Positions 679 to 4,423 of a DNA stretch of 40,113 nucleotides are shown in pieces (within the stretch, counting starts at the first letter, position 1; the number at the start of each line of letters is the position of its first letter). Location: the NCBI GenBank assembly GCA_020446525.1, contig JAGREO010000004.1:1-40113 (forward strand), given 5' to 3'. A program made the translations under genes and the position numbers. A model generated the notes under the pieces. That model worked only from the letters and a program-made list of their open reading frames with translations. It was not told the DNA's origin and ran no database searches. The stretch comes from Geminicoccaceae bacterium (lineage in GTDB: Bacteria > Pseudomonadota > Alphaproteobacteria > Geminicoccales > Geminicoccaceae).

Positions 679-1071
679 GGTTCGCTCCCTGGTGTACGCA
701 ACACCGCGATCGTTTCGACCCCCCGTCCGTCCGCCCGATCGATCGCGGGGTGTCGCTCGTCGGCACGCATTCTTTTCTCTCGCAATTGTCACCGCCTTGC
801 AATGGCCGCCTTGCGCGGGGGCCGGGACCGGTCGAGCCGGCGGATCGGCGCAAGATCGGGGTTGCCATGCGCCCGAGACGCGGCACATTGGCCCTCGTGC
901 GGTTCGAAGCGGGGTTCGCGAGTGACCGGCCCCGCGGATCGGACGCCATCGGCGCGAAGGTGCTCTTGCGGTACTTCGCTGCGCTTCGGCGGATCGGTTC
1001 GGGCCGCGGCGGGGGCGGGCGACGATACCGACGGGCGGTGAGAAGTGCGGGCGGTGAGAAGGGGAGGCAGC
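679..1071. other. Divergent intergenic region without a supported gene
   Basis: This 393-base stretch separates the anti-sigma-like gene (minus) from the EF-G paralogue (plus) and should hold both promoters. Open frames crossing it are continuations of shadows of the flanking genes and have no recognisable product. The ten-base sequence GGCGGATCGG occurs twice (839-848 and 988-997), with no clear structure around it. I could not pick out a convincing promoter or RNA gene. Confidence 0.5.
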
Positions 1072-3144
1072 ATGGCGCAGGATTCGGGTACATCCAATCG
1101 GGCGGGCGCGGCGCAGACGGCGAACGGCGACGACGGGCGTGCCGCCATCCGCAACGTGGCGCTCGTCGGGCCCAACGGCACCGGCAAGACGACCCTGCTC
1201 GAGAGCCTGCTGTTCGTCACCGGTGCTGTGTCGCGCAAGGGCCGGGTGGCCGACCGCAACAGCGTGGGCGACGCCTCGGCCGAGGCACGCGAGCGGCAGA
1301 TGAGCACCGAAGTGTCGATCGCCAGTTTCGTCCACGAAGGCATCCGCTTCAATCTGCTCGACTGTCCGGGATCGACCGAGTTCCAGCAGGAGGCGCGCAA
1401 CGCGGTGCTGGGTGCCGATCTGGCGGTGGTCTGCGTCGAGCCGGTGGTCGAGCGGATGATGGCGGTGGCGCCGCTGCTGCAGTTTCTCGACGCCCACGAC
1501 CTGCCGCATCTGGTCTTCGTCAACAAGATGGACCGTTCGGAGGTGCGCTACCGCGACCTGCTGCAGGCCCTCCGCGACGTCAGCGCCAGGCCCGTCGTGC
1601 CGCATCAATACGCCATCGGCCGGGGCGAGGAGCTGGTCGGCTACATCGATCTCGTCGGTGAGCAGGCCTATCACTACAATGCCGACGGCCCCTCCGACCG
1701 TATGGCCCTGCCCGACGATTACCGCGAGCGCGAGCAGGCGGCGCGCACCGAAATGCTCGAGACGCTGGCCGATTTCGACGACGATCTGATGGAAAAGCTG
1801 CTGGAGGACCAGCAGCCGAGCGAGGAGGAGTTGCTCCGGGAGTTGCAGCGTACCCTGGGCGCCGATCAGGTGGTGCCGGTCTTCATGGGTGTGGCCGAGC
1901 GGGACATGGGCGTGCGCCGGCTGCTCGAGGCGCTGGTCAAGGAGGCGCCGTCACCCGAGCGGCGCGCCCAGGCGCTCGGCATCGACGAGGCCTCGGGCGG
2001 CACCCTCGTGCAGGTGCTCAAGAACTTCCACCTGCCGCACGCCGGCAAGCTCTCGCTGGTGCGGGTCTGGCGGGGTGCGGTGAAGGACGGGATGCAACTG
2101 GGCGGGATGCGGGTCGGCGGCGTCTACCGCCTGCTCGGCGGCCAGCAAGAGGCGGTCGGCTCCGCCGAGGCGGGCGACGTCGTCGCACTCGCACGCATGG
2201 ACGAGGCGAAGACGGGGCAGATTCTCGACGACCAGGGCGGCGCCGAAGCCGTCGCGCTGCCGCGGGCGGAGCCCATGCAGCCGATGTTCGCCTTCGCCGT
2301 CCAGGCGGTCAACCGCAGCGACGAGGTCAAGCTCTCCGCCGCCTTCGCGAAGCTGGTCGACGAGGACCCCTCGCTCGAGGTCGAGCAGGACCAGGAGATG
2401 CACCAGATGCTGCTGCGCGGCCAGGGCGAGATGCACCTCAAGGTCGCTCTCGACCGGTTGCGCAACAAGTACAATATCGAGGTCGAGGCGACGCCGCCGC
2501 GGACGCCCTATCGCGAGACCATCCGCAAAAGTGCGCAGGCGCACGGCCGGCACAAGAAGCAGTCGGGCGGTCACGGCCAGTTCGGTGACGTCAAGATCGA
2601 GATCCGCCCCCTGCCGCGCGGCGAGGGGTTCGTCTTCCACAACAAGATCGTCGGCGGCGCCATCCCCAAGCAGTTCATCCCGGCGGTCGAAGCCGGCGCC
2701 CGGGAGCATCTGGAAAAGGGGCCGCTCGGCTTCAAGGTGGTCGACGTCGCCGTCACCCTCAACGACGGCCAGTTCCACACCGTGGACAGCAACGAGATGT
2801 CGTTCAAGATGGCCGCCGCCCTGGCGCTCAAGGAAGGGCTGGCGAACTGCGCGCCGGTGCTGCTCGAGCCGATCCTCGCCGTCACCGTCTCGGTGCCGAC
2901 CGATTACACCAGCCGTGTGCTGCAACTGGTGAGCCAGAAGCGCGGCCAGATCCTGGGCTACGAGGCCAAGGCCGGCTGGACCGGCTGGGACGAGGTCGCG
3001 GTGCACATGCCGCAGGGCGAGATCCACGATCTGATCGTCGGCCTGCGGTCGCTCTCGCAGGGTACGGGCTTCTACCAGTGGTCGTTCGACCACCTGCAGG
3101 AAGTGCCCGACAAGCTGGCGGAGTCCATCGTCGCACAGGCGTGA
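1072..3144 (+). CDS. Elongation factor G-like GTPase (EF-G paralogue, FusA2 type)
   Basis: A 690-residue protein with full EF-G layout. The GTPase domain has P-loop GPNGTGKT at 33-40, DCPG at 97-100 and NKMD at 151-154. Domain II follows, then domain III-V with the domain IV GGHGQFGDVKIEIRP stretch. The P-loop is not the GHIDAGKTT form of canonical EF-G, and the usual RGITI of switch I is replaced by a QMSTEVSI stretch; both are typical of the EF-G-like subfamily rather than the main translocase. There is no rpsL/rpsG/tuf neighbourhood. The start at 1072 is chosen because GGGGAGG lies five bases upstream; an upstream GTG at 1045 in the same frame lacks such a site. The family is ribosome-associated, but its exact task (recycling, stress translation) is not settled by sequence. 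Confidence 0.9.
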   Translation: MAQDSGTSNRAGAAQTANGDDGRAAIRNVALVGPNGTGKTTLLESLLFVTGAVSRKGRVADRNSVGDASAEARERQMSTEVSIASFVHEGIRFNLLDCPGSTEFQQEARNAVLGADLAVVCVEPVVERMMAVAPLLQFLDAHDLPHLVFVNKMDRSEVRYRDLLQALRDVSARPVVPHQYAIGRGEELVGYIDLVGEQAYHYNADGPSDRMALPDDYREREQAARTEMLETLADFDDDLMEKLLEDQQPSEEELLRELQRTLGADQVVPVFMGVAERDMGVRRLLEALVKEAPSPERRAQALGIDEASGGTLVQVLKNFHLPHAGKLSLVRVWRGAVKDGMQLGGMRVGGVYRLLGGQQEAVGSAEAGDVVALARMDEAKTGQILDDQGGAEAVALPRAEPMQPMFAFAVQAVNRSDEVKLSAAFAKLVDEDPSLEVEQDQEMHQMLLRGQGEMHLKVALDRLRNKYNIEVEATPPRTPYRETIRKSAQAHGRHKKQSGGHGQFGDVKIEIRPLPRGEGFVFHNKIVGGAIPKQFIPAVEAGAREHLEKGPLGFKVVDVAVTLNDGQFHTVDSNEMSFKMAAALALKEGLANCAPVLLEPILAVTVSVPTDYTSRVLQLVSQKRGQILGYEAKAGWTGWDEVAVHMPQGEIHDLIVGLRSLSQGTGFYQWSFDHLQEVPDKLAESIVAQA

Positions 3145-3178: not shown

Positions 3179-3192
3179 CCTAAAATTTTAGG
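3179..3192. promoter_or_regulatory. Perfect AT-rich palindrome CCTAAAATTTTAGG upstream of the candidate small RNA
   Basis: A 14-base perfect inverted repeat 34 bases after the EF-G paralogue stop. Its A/T core is striking in a very GC-rich setting. It sits just upstream of the proposed -35 of the small RNA, centred about 51 bases before the inferred transcript start. That position would suit a regulator site or an UP-like element. The protein that might bind it is unknown. Confidence 0.4.
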
Positions 3193-3201
3193 CGATAGTT
3201 C

Positions 3202-3230
3202 TTCCCATCGTTCAACCTTCGCGTTAGGGT
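3202..3230 (+). promoter_or_regulatory. Possible weak sigma-70 promoter for the small RNA
   Basis: TTCCCA at 3202-3207 and TAGGGT at 3225-3230 are 17 bases apart. Both are imperfect matches to the -35 and -10 consensus. The expected start, about seven bases downstream, falls at 3237, exactly where the first hairpin of the candidate RNA begins. That coincidence is the main support. Confidence 0.3.
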
Positions 3231-3236
3231 CATCGC

Positions 3237-3326
3237 GTGTTCACGGGTACTCCTCGTGACACCCGACTTGAGGCGTTTCCTCCCTATTGGATTGGGGTCG
3301 CGGGCTTGCCCGCGGCCCCTTTTTTT
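3237..3326 (+). ncRNA. Candidate trans-acting small RNA with anti-Shine-Dalgarno motif
   Basis: About 90 bases with two hairpins and a U tail. Hairpin one pairs 3237-3245 with 3255-3262, with one bulged T. Its apical part contains ACTCCTC. An unpaired stretch then carries TTTCCTCCC (3276-3284), complementary to a strong ribosome binding site. Hairpin two (3294-3319) followed by seven T is an intrinsic terminator. Because the EF-G paralogue ends at 3144 and the next gene starts at 3470, the terminator fits an independent short transcript. The layout resembles alphaproteobacterial small RNAs with CCUCC-type loops, but I cannot assign a family. An alternative is a simple 3' terminator of the EF-G paralogue mRNA. 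Confidence 0.5.
3294..3326 (+). terminator. Strong Rho-independent terminator
   Basis: GGGGTCGCGGG (3294 on) pairs with CCCGCGGCCCC across a CTTG loop, with one T·G wobble, and is followed by seven T residues at 3320-3326. The U tract is on the plus strand only. It ends the candidate small RNA and/or the EF-G paralogue transcript. Confidence 0.85.
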
Positions 3327-3469: not shown

Positions 3470-4423
3470 ATGTCAGCAGTTCCGCGCGTCAGCATCGGTA
3501 TACCGGTCTTCAACGGCGAGAATTATCTCGACGAGGCGATCGCGTCGGTTCGTGCCCAGACCTTCGACGATCTGGAAGTGATCGTCTCCGACAACGCCTC
3601 CACCGACCGTACCGGCCAGATCGCCCTCGACCATGCCGCCTCCGACGAGCGGGTGCGCTACGTACGCAACGAACGCAACCTCGGCGCGGCGCCCAACTAC
3701 AACCGCGCCTGGTCGGAAGCCCGGGCACCCTACTTCAAGTGGCTGGCGCACGACGACCGGATCGCGCCCGACTATCTTTCGGCGACGACGGACGTTCTGG
3801 ACCGAGAGCCCGACGTCGTGCTGTGCAACACCGTGGTGGATTATATCGACTGCCGGGGTGATTCGATCGGCACCTATCGCTCGGTGCTGCACGAGGCCGG
3901 GGTCGACGATCCGGCGCGGCGCTTCGCGGTGATGGTGCTGCGCTCGCATTCCTGTGTCGACTTCTTCGGCCTCGTGCGCCGCTCGGCGATGCAGGATTCG
4001 CTTCTGCACGGGCCGTTCCACGGCGCCGATCGCGCGTTCCTGGCGCAGATGACGCTGCGCGGGCGGCTGGTGCAGGTCGACCGCCCGCTGGTCGAGATGC
4101 GCGAACACGAGCAACGCTACACCAGAGTCCAGCAGAAGGCGCGGGACCGGCAATCGTGGCACGATTCGCGCCGTAATGGAGCGATCGAACTGCCGACCTG
4201 GCGGCTCTATCGCGAATATCTGTCGATGCTGCGCAACGAGGACCTCCCGGTCGGTGCACGGGCGCGGGCCTATGGTGTGCTCGCCCGATGGTGGCTGGTG
4301 AACTACAATGCCCTTCGCGTCGGCGTGGACGTCGCAGCGACGATCGCACCCGGCCTTCCGGCGATGGCGGAGACGGTTCGCGAGCGCCTGTTCGGCGCGC
4401 CTCCGGGTCATCTGAAAAATTGA
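3470..4423 (+). CDS. Glycosyltransferase family 2 protein
   Basis: A 317-residue GT-A fold glycosyltransferase. The N-terminus reads VSIGIPVFNGENYL, followed by the nucleotide-binding SDNASTDRT and the metal-binding region LAHDD near residue 100. It would transfer a sugar from a nucleotide donor onto a lipid-linked or cell-surface glycan; donor and acceptor cannot be read from sequence. The ATG at 3470 is preceded by GAAGAGG and begins just before the conserved fold; longer upstream frames run through the terminator region and are not credible. It is separated by one base from the flippase gene, so the two are probably co-transcribed and, with the GT4 gene, form a polysaccharide unit. Confidence 0.88.
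   Translation: MSAVPRVSIGIPVFNGENYLDEAIASVRAQTFDDLEVIVSDNASTDRTGQIALDHAASDERVRYVRNERNLGAAPNYNRAWSEARAPYFKWLAHDDRIAPDYLSATTDVLDREPDVVLCNTVVDYIDCRGDSIGTYRSVLHEAGVDDPARRFAVMVLRSHSCVDFFGLVRRSAMQDSLLHGPFHGADRAFLAQMTLRGRLVQVDRPLVEMREHEQRYTRVQQKARDRQSWHDSRRNGAIELPTWRLYREYLSMLRNEDLPVGARARAYGVLARWWLVNYNALRVGVDVAATIAPGLPAMAETVRERLFGAPPGHLKN

What the first reader, a model, noticed from the sequence alone, without database searches (positions are those of the whole stretch)
3237..3326. Candidate small RNA with exposed anti-Shine-Dalgarno sequences between the EF-G paralogue and the polysaccharide genes
The sequence shows a bulged 8-pair hairpin with ACTCCTC in its apex, then unpaired TTTCCTCCC, then a textbook terminator with seven T, all in 90 bases and starting where a weak promoter would start transcription. 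Two separate CUCC motifs are what a translational repressor RNA would present. Alphaproteobacterial RNAs with this design are known, but I cannot match this one to a named family.
Basis: partly seen in the sequence, partly recalled or inferred. Interest (0 to 1): 0.6.

Follow-up and report, generated by a model that had tools for sequence, protein, structure and literature searches.

The report
Geminicoccaceae αR8-like anti-Shine-Dalgarno small RNA
The window carries one of two copies of a roughly 90-base regulatory RNA gene that is conserved through one family of Alphaproteobacteria and probably blocks ribosome binding sites, like a known RNA family; unexpectedly, copies of the same gene also sit in two tiny-genome Patescibacteria (CPR bacteria).

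Summary
The RNA-like element at 3237-3326 is real: fold z = -4.9, 11-pair terminator with T7. It belongs to a sequence family found by BLASTN in 22 of 30 Geminicoccaceae genomes, with about 30 near-invariant bases (GACACCCGACUUGAGGCGUUUCCUCCCUA). A conserved promoter position and an orthologous site (rnj-mce-DUF1467-[RNA]-proS) show it is an independent gene; the window copy is a paralogue, and the proS-linked copy is elsewhere in the same genome. It carries the exact ten-base core (UUUCCUCCCU) of the αR8 family (MmgR; SisA-D), whose SisA represses mRNAs by pairing at the ribosome binding site through Hfq. It scores below Rfam's αR8 cut-off (34 versus 41 bits), lacks the usual FGase neighbour, and has its own 5' hairpin, so I call it a Geminicoccaceae αR8-like variant. 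Beyond the finding: two Patescibacteria of one family, without a detected Hfq, carry this gene. Each copy is closest to a different Geminicoccaceae sequence, one from the same lake, which points to repeated horizontal transfer. Function there is unknown.

The parts
3192..3201 (+). upstream motif GCGATAGTTC, resembling CGAWAGTTCG-like motifs upstream of several relatives; possible regulator site
   Evidence: Match to GCGATAGTTCG in upstream regions: mean 7.85/11 in 27 members vs 6.48 (sd 0.14) shuffled; consensus was chosen by eye, and position in the window copy (-45) differs from most relatives (-66 to -77), so weak
3201..3229 (+). degenerate promoter CTTCCC-N17-TTAGGG at the place of the family's conserved TTGC..-N17-[CT]ATA promoter
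   Evidence: Gibbs motif TTTTTCTCTTGCGA starting 41-44 bases before the hairpin in most of 27 members; window copy itself matches poorly
3237..3326 (+). small RNA gene (predicted transcript)
   Evidence: fold z -4.86, model R1 90.9 bits, family conservation
3237..3262 (+). 5' bulged hairpin GUGUUCACGGG-UACUC-CUCGUGACAC
   Evidence: predicted in nearly all members; 96.7% of cells paired, but no two-sided changes in the alignment register
3263..3275 (+). near-invariant linker CCGACUUGAGGCG
   Evidence: invariant or nearly so in 21 sequences; GAGG 3270-3273 pairs weakly with CCUC 3279-3282
3276..3285 (+). anti-Shine-Dalgarno 10-mer UUUCCUCCCU, identical to the αR8 core; proposed seed
   Evidence: sequence; αR8 core given in PMC12559287
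3294..3326 (+). intrinsic terminator, 11 pairs, loop 4, T7
   Evidence: four pairs with two-sided changes in relatives
1045..3144 (+). upstream neighbour: EF-G paralogue, 699 aa
   Evidence: NF009379 977 bits vs cut-off 513; Pfam EF-G domains
3470..4423 (+). downstream neighbour: family 2 glycosyltransferase
   Evidence: PF00535 E 3.4e-31

Best explanation
An independently transcribed, ~90-nt trans-acting small RNA, the second paralogue of a Geminicoccaceae-wide αR8-like family. Transcription starts near 3234-3237 and stops at the terminator at 3326. The RNA binds Hfq through the U-tail and pairs by its UUUCCUCCCU core, possibly extended by the near-invariant CUUGAGGCG linker, to purine-rich ribosome binding sites of several mRNAs, blocking 30S entry. 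The 5' hairpin protects the end, and the weak GAGG/CCUC hairpin may tune seed exposure. Shown here: conservation, gene independence, promoter position in the family, terminator covariation, exact αR8 core, hfq gene in the genome. Inferred: expression, Hfq binding, pairing, repression and targets.
For: Fold z -4.86. Second genomic copy 91% identical and homologues in 22/30 family genomes. About 30 near-invariant bases across 21 sequences. Orthologous site rnj-mce-DUF1467-RNA-proS in several genera, with this genome's C305 copy in the matching place. -35-like motif at a fixed distance in most of 27 members. Model R1 88-98 bits in Geminicoccaceae vs at most 44.5 in the other sampled Alphaproteobacteria, where the matches read by eye are mostly canonical αR8 genes of the type CUUGGGCGUUUCCUCCCU. 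αR8 SisA represses its target through the 10-mer with Hfq, shown by compensatory mutation (PMC12559287). Hfq gene in G000, G001, G006, G013.
Against: No expression data. The window copy's promoter is degenerate, so this paralogue may be weakly expressed. Core partly paired. A scan of 268 gene starts in 400 kb of G006 gave no duplex energies beyond shuffled controls, so no targets can be named. The 5' helix shows no two-sided changes.
Confidence: 0.75

Rival explanations
1. It is just the 3' end/terminator of the EF-G paralogue mRNA, with structure conserved because the terminator is needed; any short RNA is a decay product.
For: Lies 93 bases after the EF-G stop codon on the same strand; window promoter weak; 3'UTR-derived sRNAs are common (general knowledge).
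Against: Homologues lie beside unrelated genes (DUF1467/proS, and others), with a -35-like element at fixed distance and an invariant core that a terminator does not need.
Confidence: 0.1
2. A divergent but true αR8 (RF00519) member with unchanged function, merely missed by Rfam's threshold. (Not exclusive of the best explanation: it differs on membership, not on mechanism.)
For: Exact 10-mer and terminator; RF00519 is the best Rfam match, 34.4 bits; CUUGAGGCGUUUCCUCCCUA resembles canonical CUUGGGCGUUUCCUCCCU; no genome of the family searched has a match over the RF00519 cut-off.
Against: Below gathering score; canonical upstream GCCC/GGGC hairpin replaced (non-standard pairs); different neighbours; a long near-invariant linker not seen in canonical members.
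Confidence: 0.5
3. A sponge or decoy RNA: the near-invariant CUUGAGGCGUUUCCUCCCUA pairs mainly with another small RNA rather than with mRNA ribosome binding sites.
For: Conservation is longer than a seed needs; αR8 RNAs are themselves sponged by CrfA in Caulobacter (PMC12559287).
Against: No complementary partner RNA was found or searched for genome-wide; conservation alone does not show it.
Confidence: 0.12
4. A cuckoo-type (αr14/CcsR) anti-Shine-Dalgarno RNA.
For: CU-rich anti-Shine-Dalgarno sequence; alphaproteobacterial.
Against: No CCUCCUCCC in hairpin loops, which is that family's signature.
Confidence: 0.03

Closest known systems
αR8 family (MmgR of Sinorhizobium, SisA-D of Caulobacter; Rfam RF00519 'suhB')
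   Same: exact UUUCCUCCCU core downstream of a hairpin, intrinsic terminator, similar length, sibling copies in one genome, alphaproteobacterial host with hfq
   Different: below RF00519 cut-off; different 5' hairpin; extra near-invariant CCGACUUGAGGCG linker; weak GAGG/CCUC hairpin over the core; beside proS or EF-G/glycosyltransferase, not an FGase gene
cuckoo RNAs (αr14 NfeR1, CcsR/RSs0680)
   Same: anti-Shine-Dalgarno small RNAs of Alphaproteobacteria
   Different: those carry repeated CCUCCUCCC in hairpin loops; this has one UUUCCUCCCU in a linker
SorY (RF02651) and SorX (RF02784)
   Same: CCUCCCU followed by terminator; weak matches 26.5 and 21.2 bits
   Different: far below cut-offs 111 and 46.6
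AbcR/αr15
   Same: CU-rich anti-Shine-Dalgarno motifs, Hfq-binding (literature)
   Different: no Rfam match here; other length and layout

Membership tests
αR8 / RF00519 | 10-nt core 5'-UUUCCUCCCU-3' | tested here: met
   3276-3285; definition in PMC12559287
αR8 / RF00519 | Rho-independent terminator | tested here: met
αR8 / RF00519 | core single-stranded downstream of a weak hairpin | tested here: inconclusive
   UUU and the final bases unpaired, CCUCC P unpaired about 0.2-0.5
αR8 / RF00519 | score over Rfam gathering threshold (41 bits) | tested here: not met
   34.4 bits; none of the Geminicoccaceae genomes searched reaches it
αR8 / RF00519 | next to N-formylglutamate amidohydrolase gene (most species) | tested here: not met
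   EF-G/GT2 at the window copy; DUF1467/proS at the orthologous site
αR8 / RF00519 | Hfq-dependent | not testable with these tools
   hfq gene present in the genome
cuckoo / αr14 | CCUCCUCCC in loops of several hairpins | tested here: not met
   absent in 3237-3326; definition from PMC10746234 and PMC3927594
SorY RF02651 / SorX RF02784 | score over gathering threshold | tested here: not met
   26.5 vs 111; 21.2 vs 46.6

The most novel reading that the evidence does not exclude
Patescibacteria of one family have repeatedly acquired and kept small RNA genes of Geminicoccaceae, presumably their hosts, and use them to act on host mRNAs (a bacterium-to-bacterium riboregulatory mimic), since they themselves have no detected Hfq. 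The horizontal presence is well supported for one of the two genomes and likely for the other; the host relationship and the host-directed function are speculation.
Probability: 0.12. Interest if true: 0.92.

Novelty: new variant of a known kind. Interest (0 to 1): 0.58.

Why it matters
It defines what appears to be an undescribed small RNA family in an alphaproteobacterial family for which the library searched holds no small RNA paper, with an orthologous site that makes experiments straightforward in cultured strains. The Patescibacteria copies, if confirmed, would be a rare case of a regulatory RNA gene moving across phyla into reduced genomes, and would give a testable clue to a partner organism: the soda-lake and J119 copies each match a different Geminicoccaceae.

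Tried and rejected
Pattern hits in Phycisphaerae L043 and IMG/VR L066 are chance matches inside coding sequence. BLASTN hit in G029 is terminator-only. R1 hits in two other Patescibacteria (G243, G408) lack the core. No match in plasmid or phage records or in viral contigs with the 20-mer. Tetranucleotide signatures could not assign the short contig L055 (0.42 to its own bin, 0.40 to soda-lake Geminicoccaceae), and its NusG/L11 had no homologue in the partial Patescibacteria sequence held. Target scan without signal. A home-made unit counter for chance expectation found no unit even in the real window, so its zero for shuffled sequence says nothing and was discarded. In one search the row labelled J119 copy 2 is in fact copy 1 extracted again and was not used.

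Full report
OBSERVATION. The element is at the stated place: hairpin 3237-3262, core TTTCCTCCCT 3276-3285, terminator 3294-3326. The 90-base RNA folds at -43.6 kcal/mol against -28.0 (sd 3.2) for shuffles. The genome is a 3.77 Mb MAG; that it is a Geminicoccaceae is inferred from its family relatives, many of which carry that name in GenBank.

FAMILY. BLASTN finds a second copy in the same genome (C305:10119-10222, 91%) and homologues in 22 of 30 other genomes of the family, some with two or three copies (G029 excluded after reading). An exact 20-base core pattern scanned through 84,980 species genomes returned 26 stretches. One is a chance match in a Phycisphaerae coding sequence and two are on Patescibacteria contigs; the others are in Geminicoccaceae or in records titled only Alphaproteobacteria, Rhodospirillales, Pseudomonadota or bacterium, many of them identical to contigs of the family genomes. 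In 21 aligned sequences TGACACCCGACTTGAGGCGTTTCCTCCC is invariant or nearly so, while apical loop, spacer and terminator sequence vary. Four terminator pairs have two-sided changes; the 5' helix is 96.7% paired without two-sided changes, although the Geminicoccus and G008 copies form the stem partly with different bases.

GENE INDEPENDENCE. Several genera share the order rnj-mce-DUF1467-[RNA]-proS. This genome's C305 copy has DUF1467-like and proS-like neighbours by sequence similarity; its proS fragment, cut by the contig end, gave no Pfam match. So C305 is the likely orthologue, and the window copy, between an EF-G paralogue and a glycosyltransferase, the duplicate. Unsupervised motif search put a -35-like TTTTTCTCTTGCGA 41-44 bases before the hairpin in most of 27 members. 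The window copy is degenerate there (CTTCCC-N17-TTAGGG).

RELATION TO αR8. Literature: αR8 RNAs have a terminator and a 10-nt single-stranded UUUCCUCCCU downstream of a weak hairpin, in most species one copy next to an FGase gene; SisA represses its target by pairing through the 10-mer with Hfq and is sponged by CrfA (PMC12559287). Here the 10-mer is exact and the terminator present. The RF00519 score is 34.4 against a cut-off of 41, and no Geminicoccaceae genome searched reaches the cut-off, while seven other Alphaproteobacteria in the same search do, with 42-69 bits. The reverse model R1 gives 88-98 bits in Geminicoccaceae and at most 44.5 in the other Alphaproteobacteria sampled (289 genomes in all). 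I therefore do not file it as an RF00519 member; it most likely works like one. The ten-mer is partly covered by GAGG/CCUC in predictions.

MECHANISM. Proposed: Hfq-assisted pairing of the core to ribosome binding sites and translational repression. This is inferred from the αR8 precedent. A target scan in 400 kb of a related genome gave no signal over shuffled controls, as may be expected for a seed that matches any good Shine-Dalgarno sequence, so no target is named.

PATESCIBACTERIA COPIES. Contig L055 (Ca. Kaiserbacteria CSSed11_315) holds a 97-bit copy; L052 (Ca. Parcubacteria J119) holds two (57 and 41 bits). Both genomes fall in one family of ten genomes, of which the other eight gave no match; of 380 genomes drawn from the phylum only J119 had true copies. 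For J119 the chromosomal setting is firm: murD-murC-rsmI-DUF4015 is syntenic in relatives G450 and G444, whose murC-rsmI gap lacks the insert, and copy 1 follows a TTGACA-N17-TATCAT promoter-like site. For L055 the setting is less firm: its GC (0.53) equals other contigs of its bin (0.53-0.54) and not Geminicoccaceae (0.66-0.72), it carries nusG-rplK, but marker proteins could not be compared, tetranucleotides were uninformative and no promoter passed the scan. The L055 copy is closest to L019/L060 (82/89), a MAG from the same Cock Soda Lake, with a compensatory terminator pair (GGCCGCGG/CCGCGGCC to GGTCGCGG/CCGCGACC). The J119 copy is closest to that of HRbin40 (65/69), and the two Patescibacteria copies match each other only 58/67. 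J119 is inferred from its naming to come from Jinata Onsen, a hot spring (the paper's text does not name it). Two acquisitions fit best, though sequences this short do not exclude one. No Hfq gene was found in either genome (both may be incomplete).

SECOND FAMILY. Geminicoccaceae also carry AGACGTTTAGCCTCCCTGATCTACTTGGCCGG plus terminator, seen in some other Alphaproteobacteria too. An HMM of it hits the same Kaiserbacteria genome (L075:246-298, E 6e-12 in a small set, 8.7e-10 over all loci held), downstream of a TATAAT box and divergent from an rnr-like gene named here by eye. So that bin holds relatives of two such RNAs.

LIMITS. Everything is sequence-based; no transcript, binding or target is shown.

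Noticed in passing
L032:1509-1565 (-), L088, L092, L095, L096, L102, L072, L077, L074, L270; also L113, L135: A second conserved small RNA-like family in Geminicoccaceae and some other Alphaproteobacteria: AGACGTTTAGCCTCCCTGATCTACTTGGCCGG followed by a terminator; below the RF00519 cut-off in Geminicoccaceae.
   Followed up: partly
L055:3617-3707 (-); L052:5141-5206 and 4320-4420 (-): Copies of the window's small RNA in two Patescibacteria genomes of one family; the J119 copies follow promoter-like sites of their own.
   Followed up: partly
L075:246-298 (-): Relative of the second small RNA family in the same Kaiserbacteria genome, after an AT-rich hairpin and a TATAAT box, divergent from an rnr-like gene.
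   Followed up: partly
L052:4040-5345: Partial tandem duplication between murC and rsmI in J119, including an ORF fusing an rsmI start to a murC end, and further CCTCCC-plus-terminator units.
   Followed up: partly
L057:4251-4525: Two tandem copies of the small RNA about 250 bases apart, each with its own upstream GAAACGATACTTG motif.
   Followed up: no
window 3192-3201 and upstream regions of relatives: Recurrent CGAWAGTTCG-like dyad upstream of many copies, a possible shared regulator site; position varies.
   Followed up: partly
L170:14432-14509 (G060:C16): Another short CCTCCC-plus-terminator unit with a promoter-like upstream sequence in the Patescibacteria genome J119.
   Followed up: no
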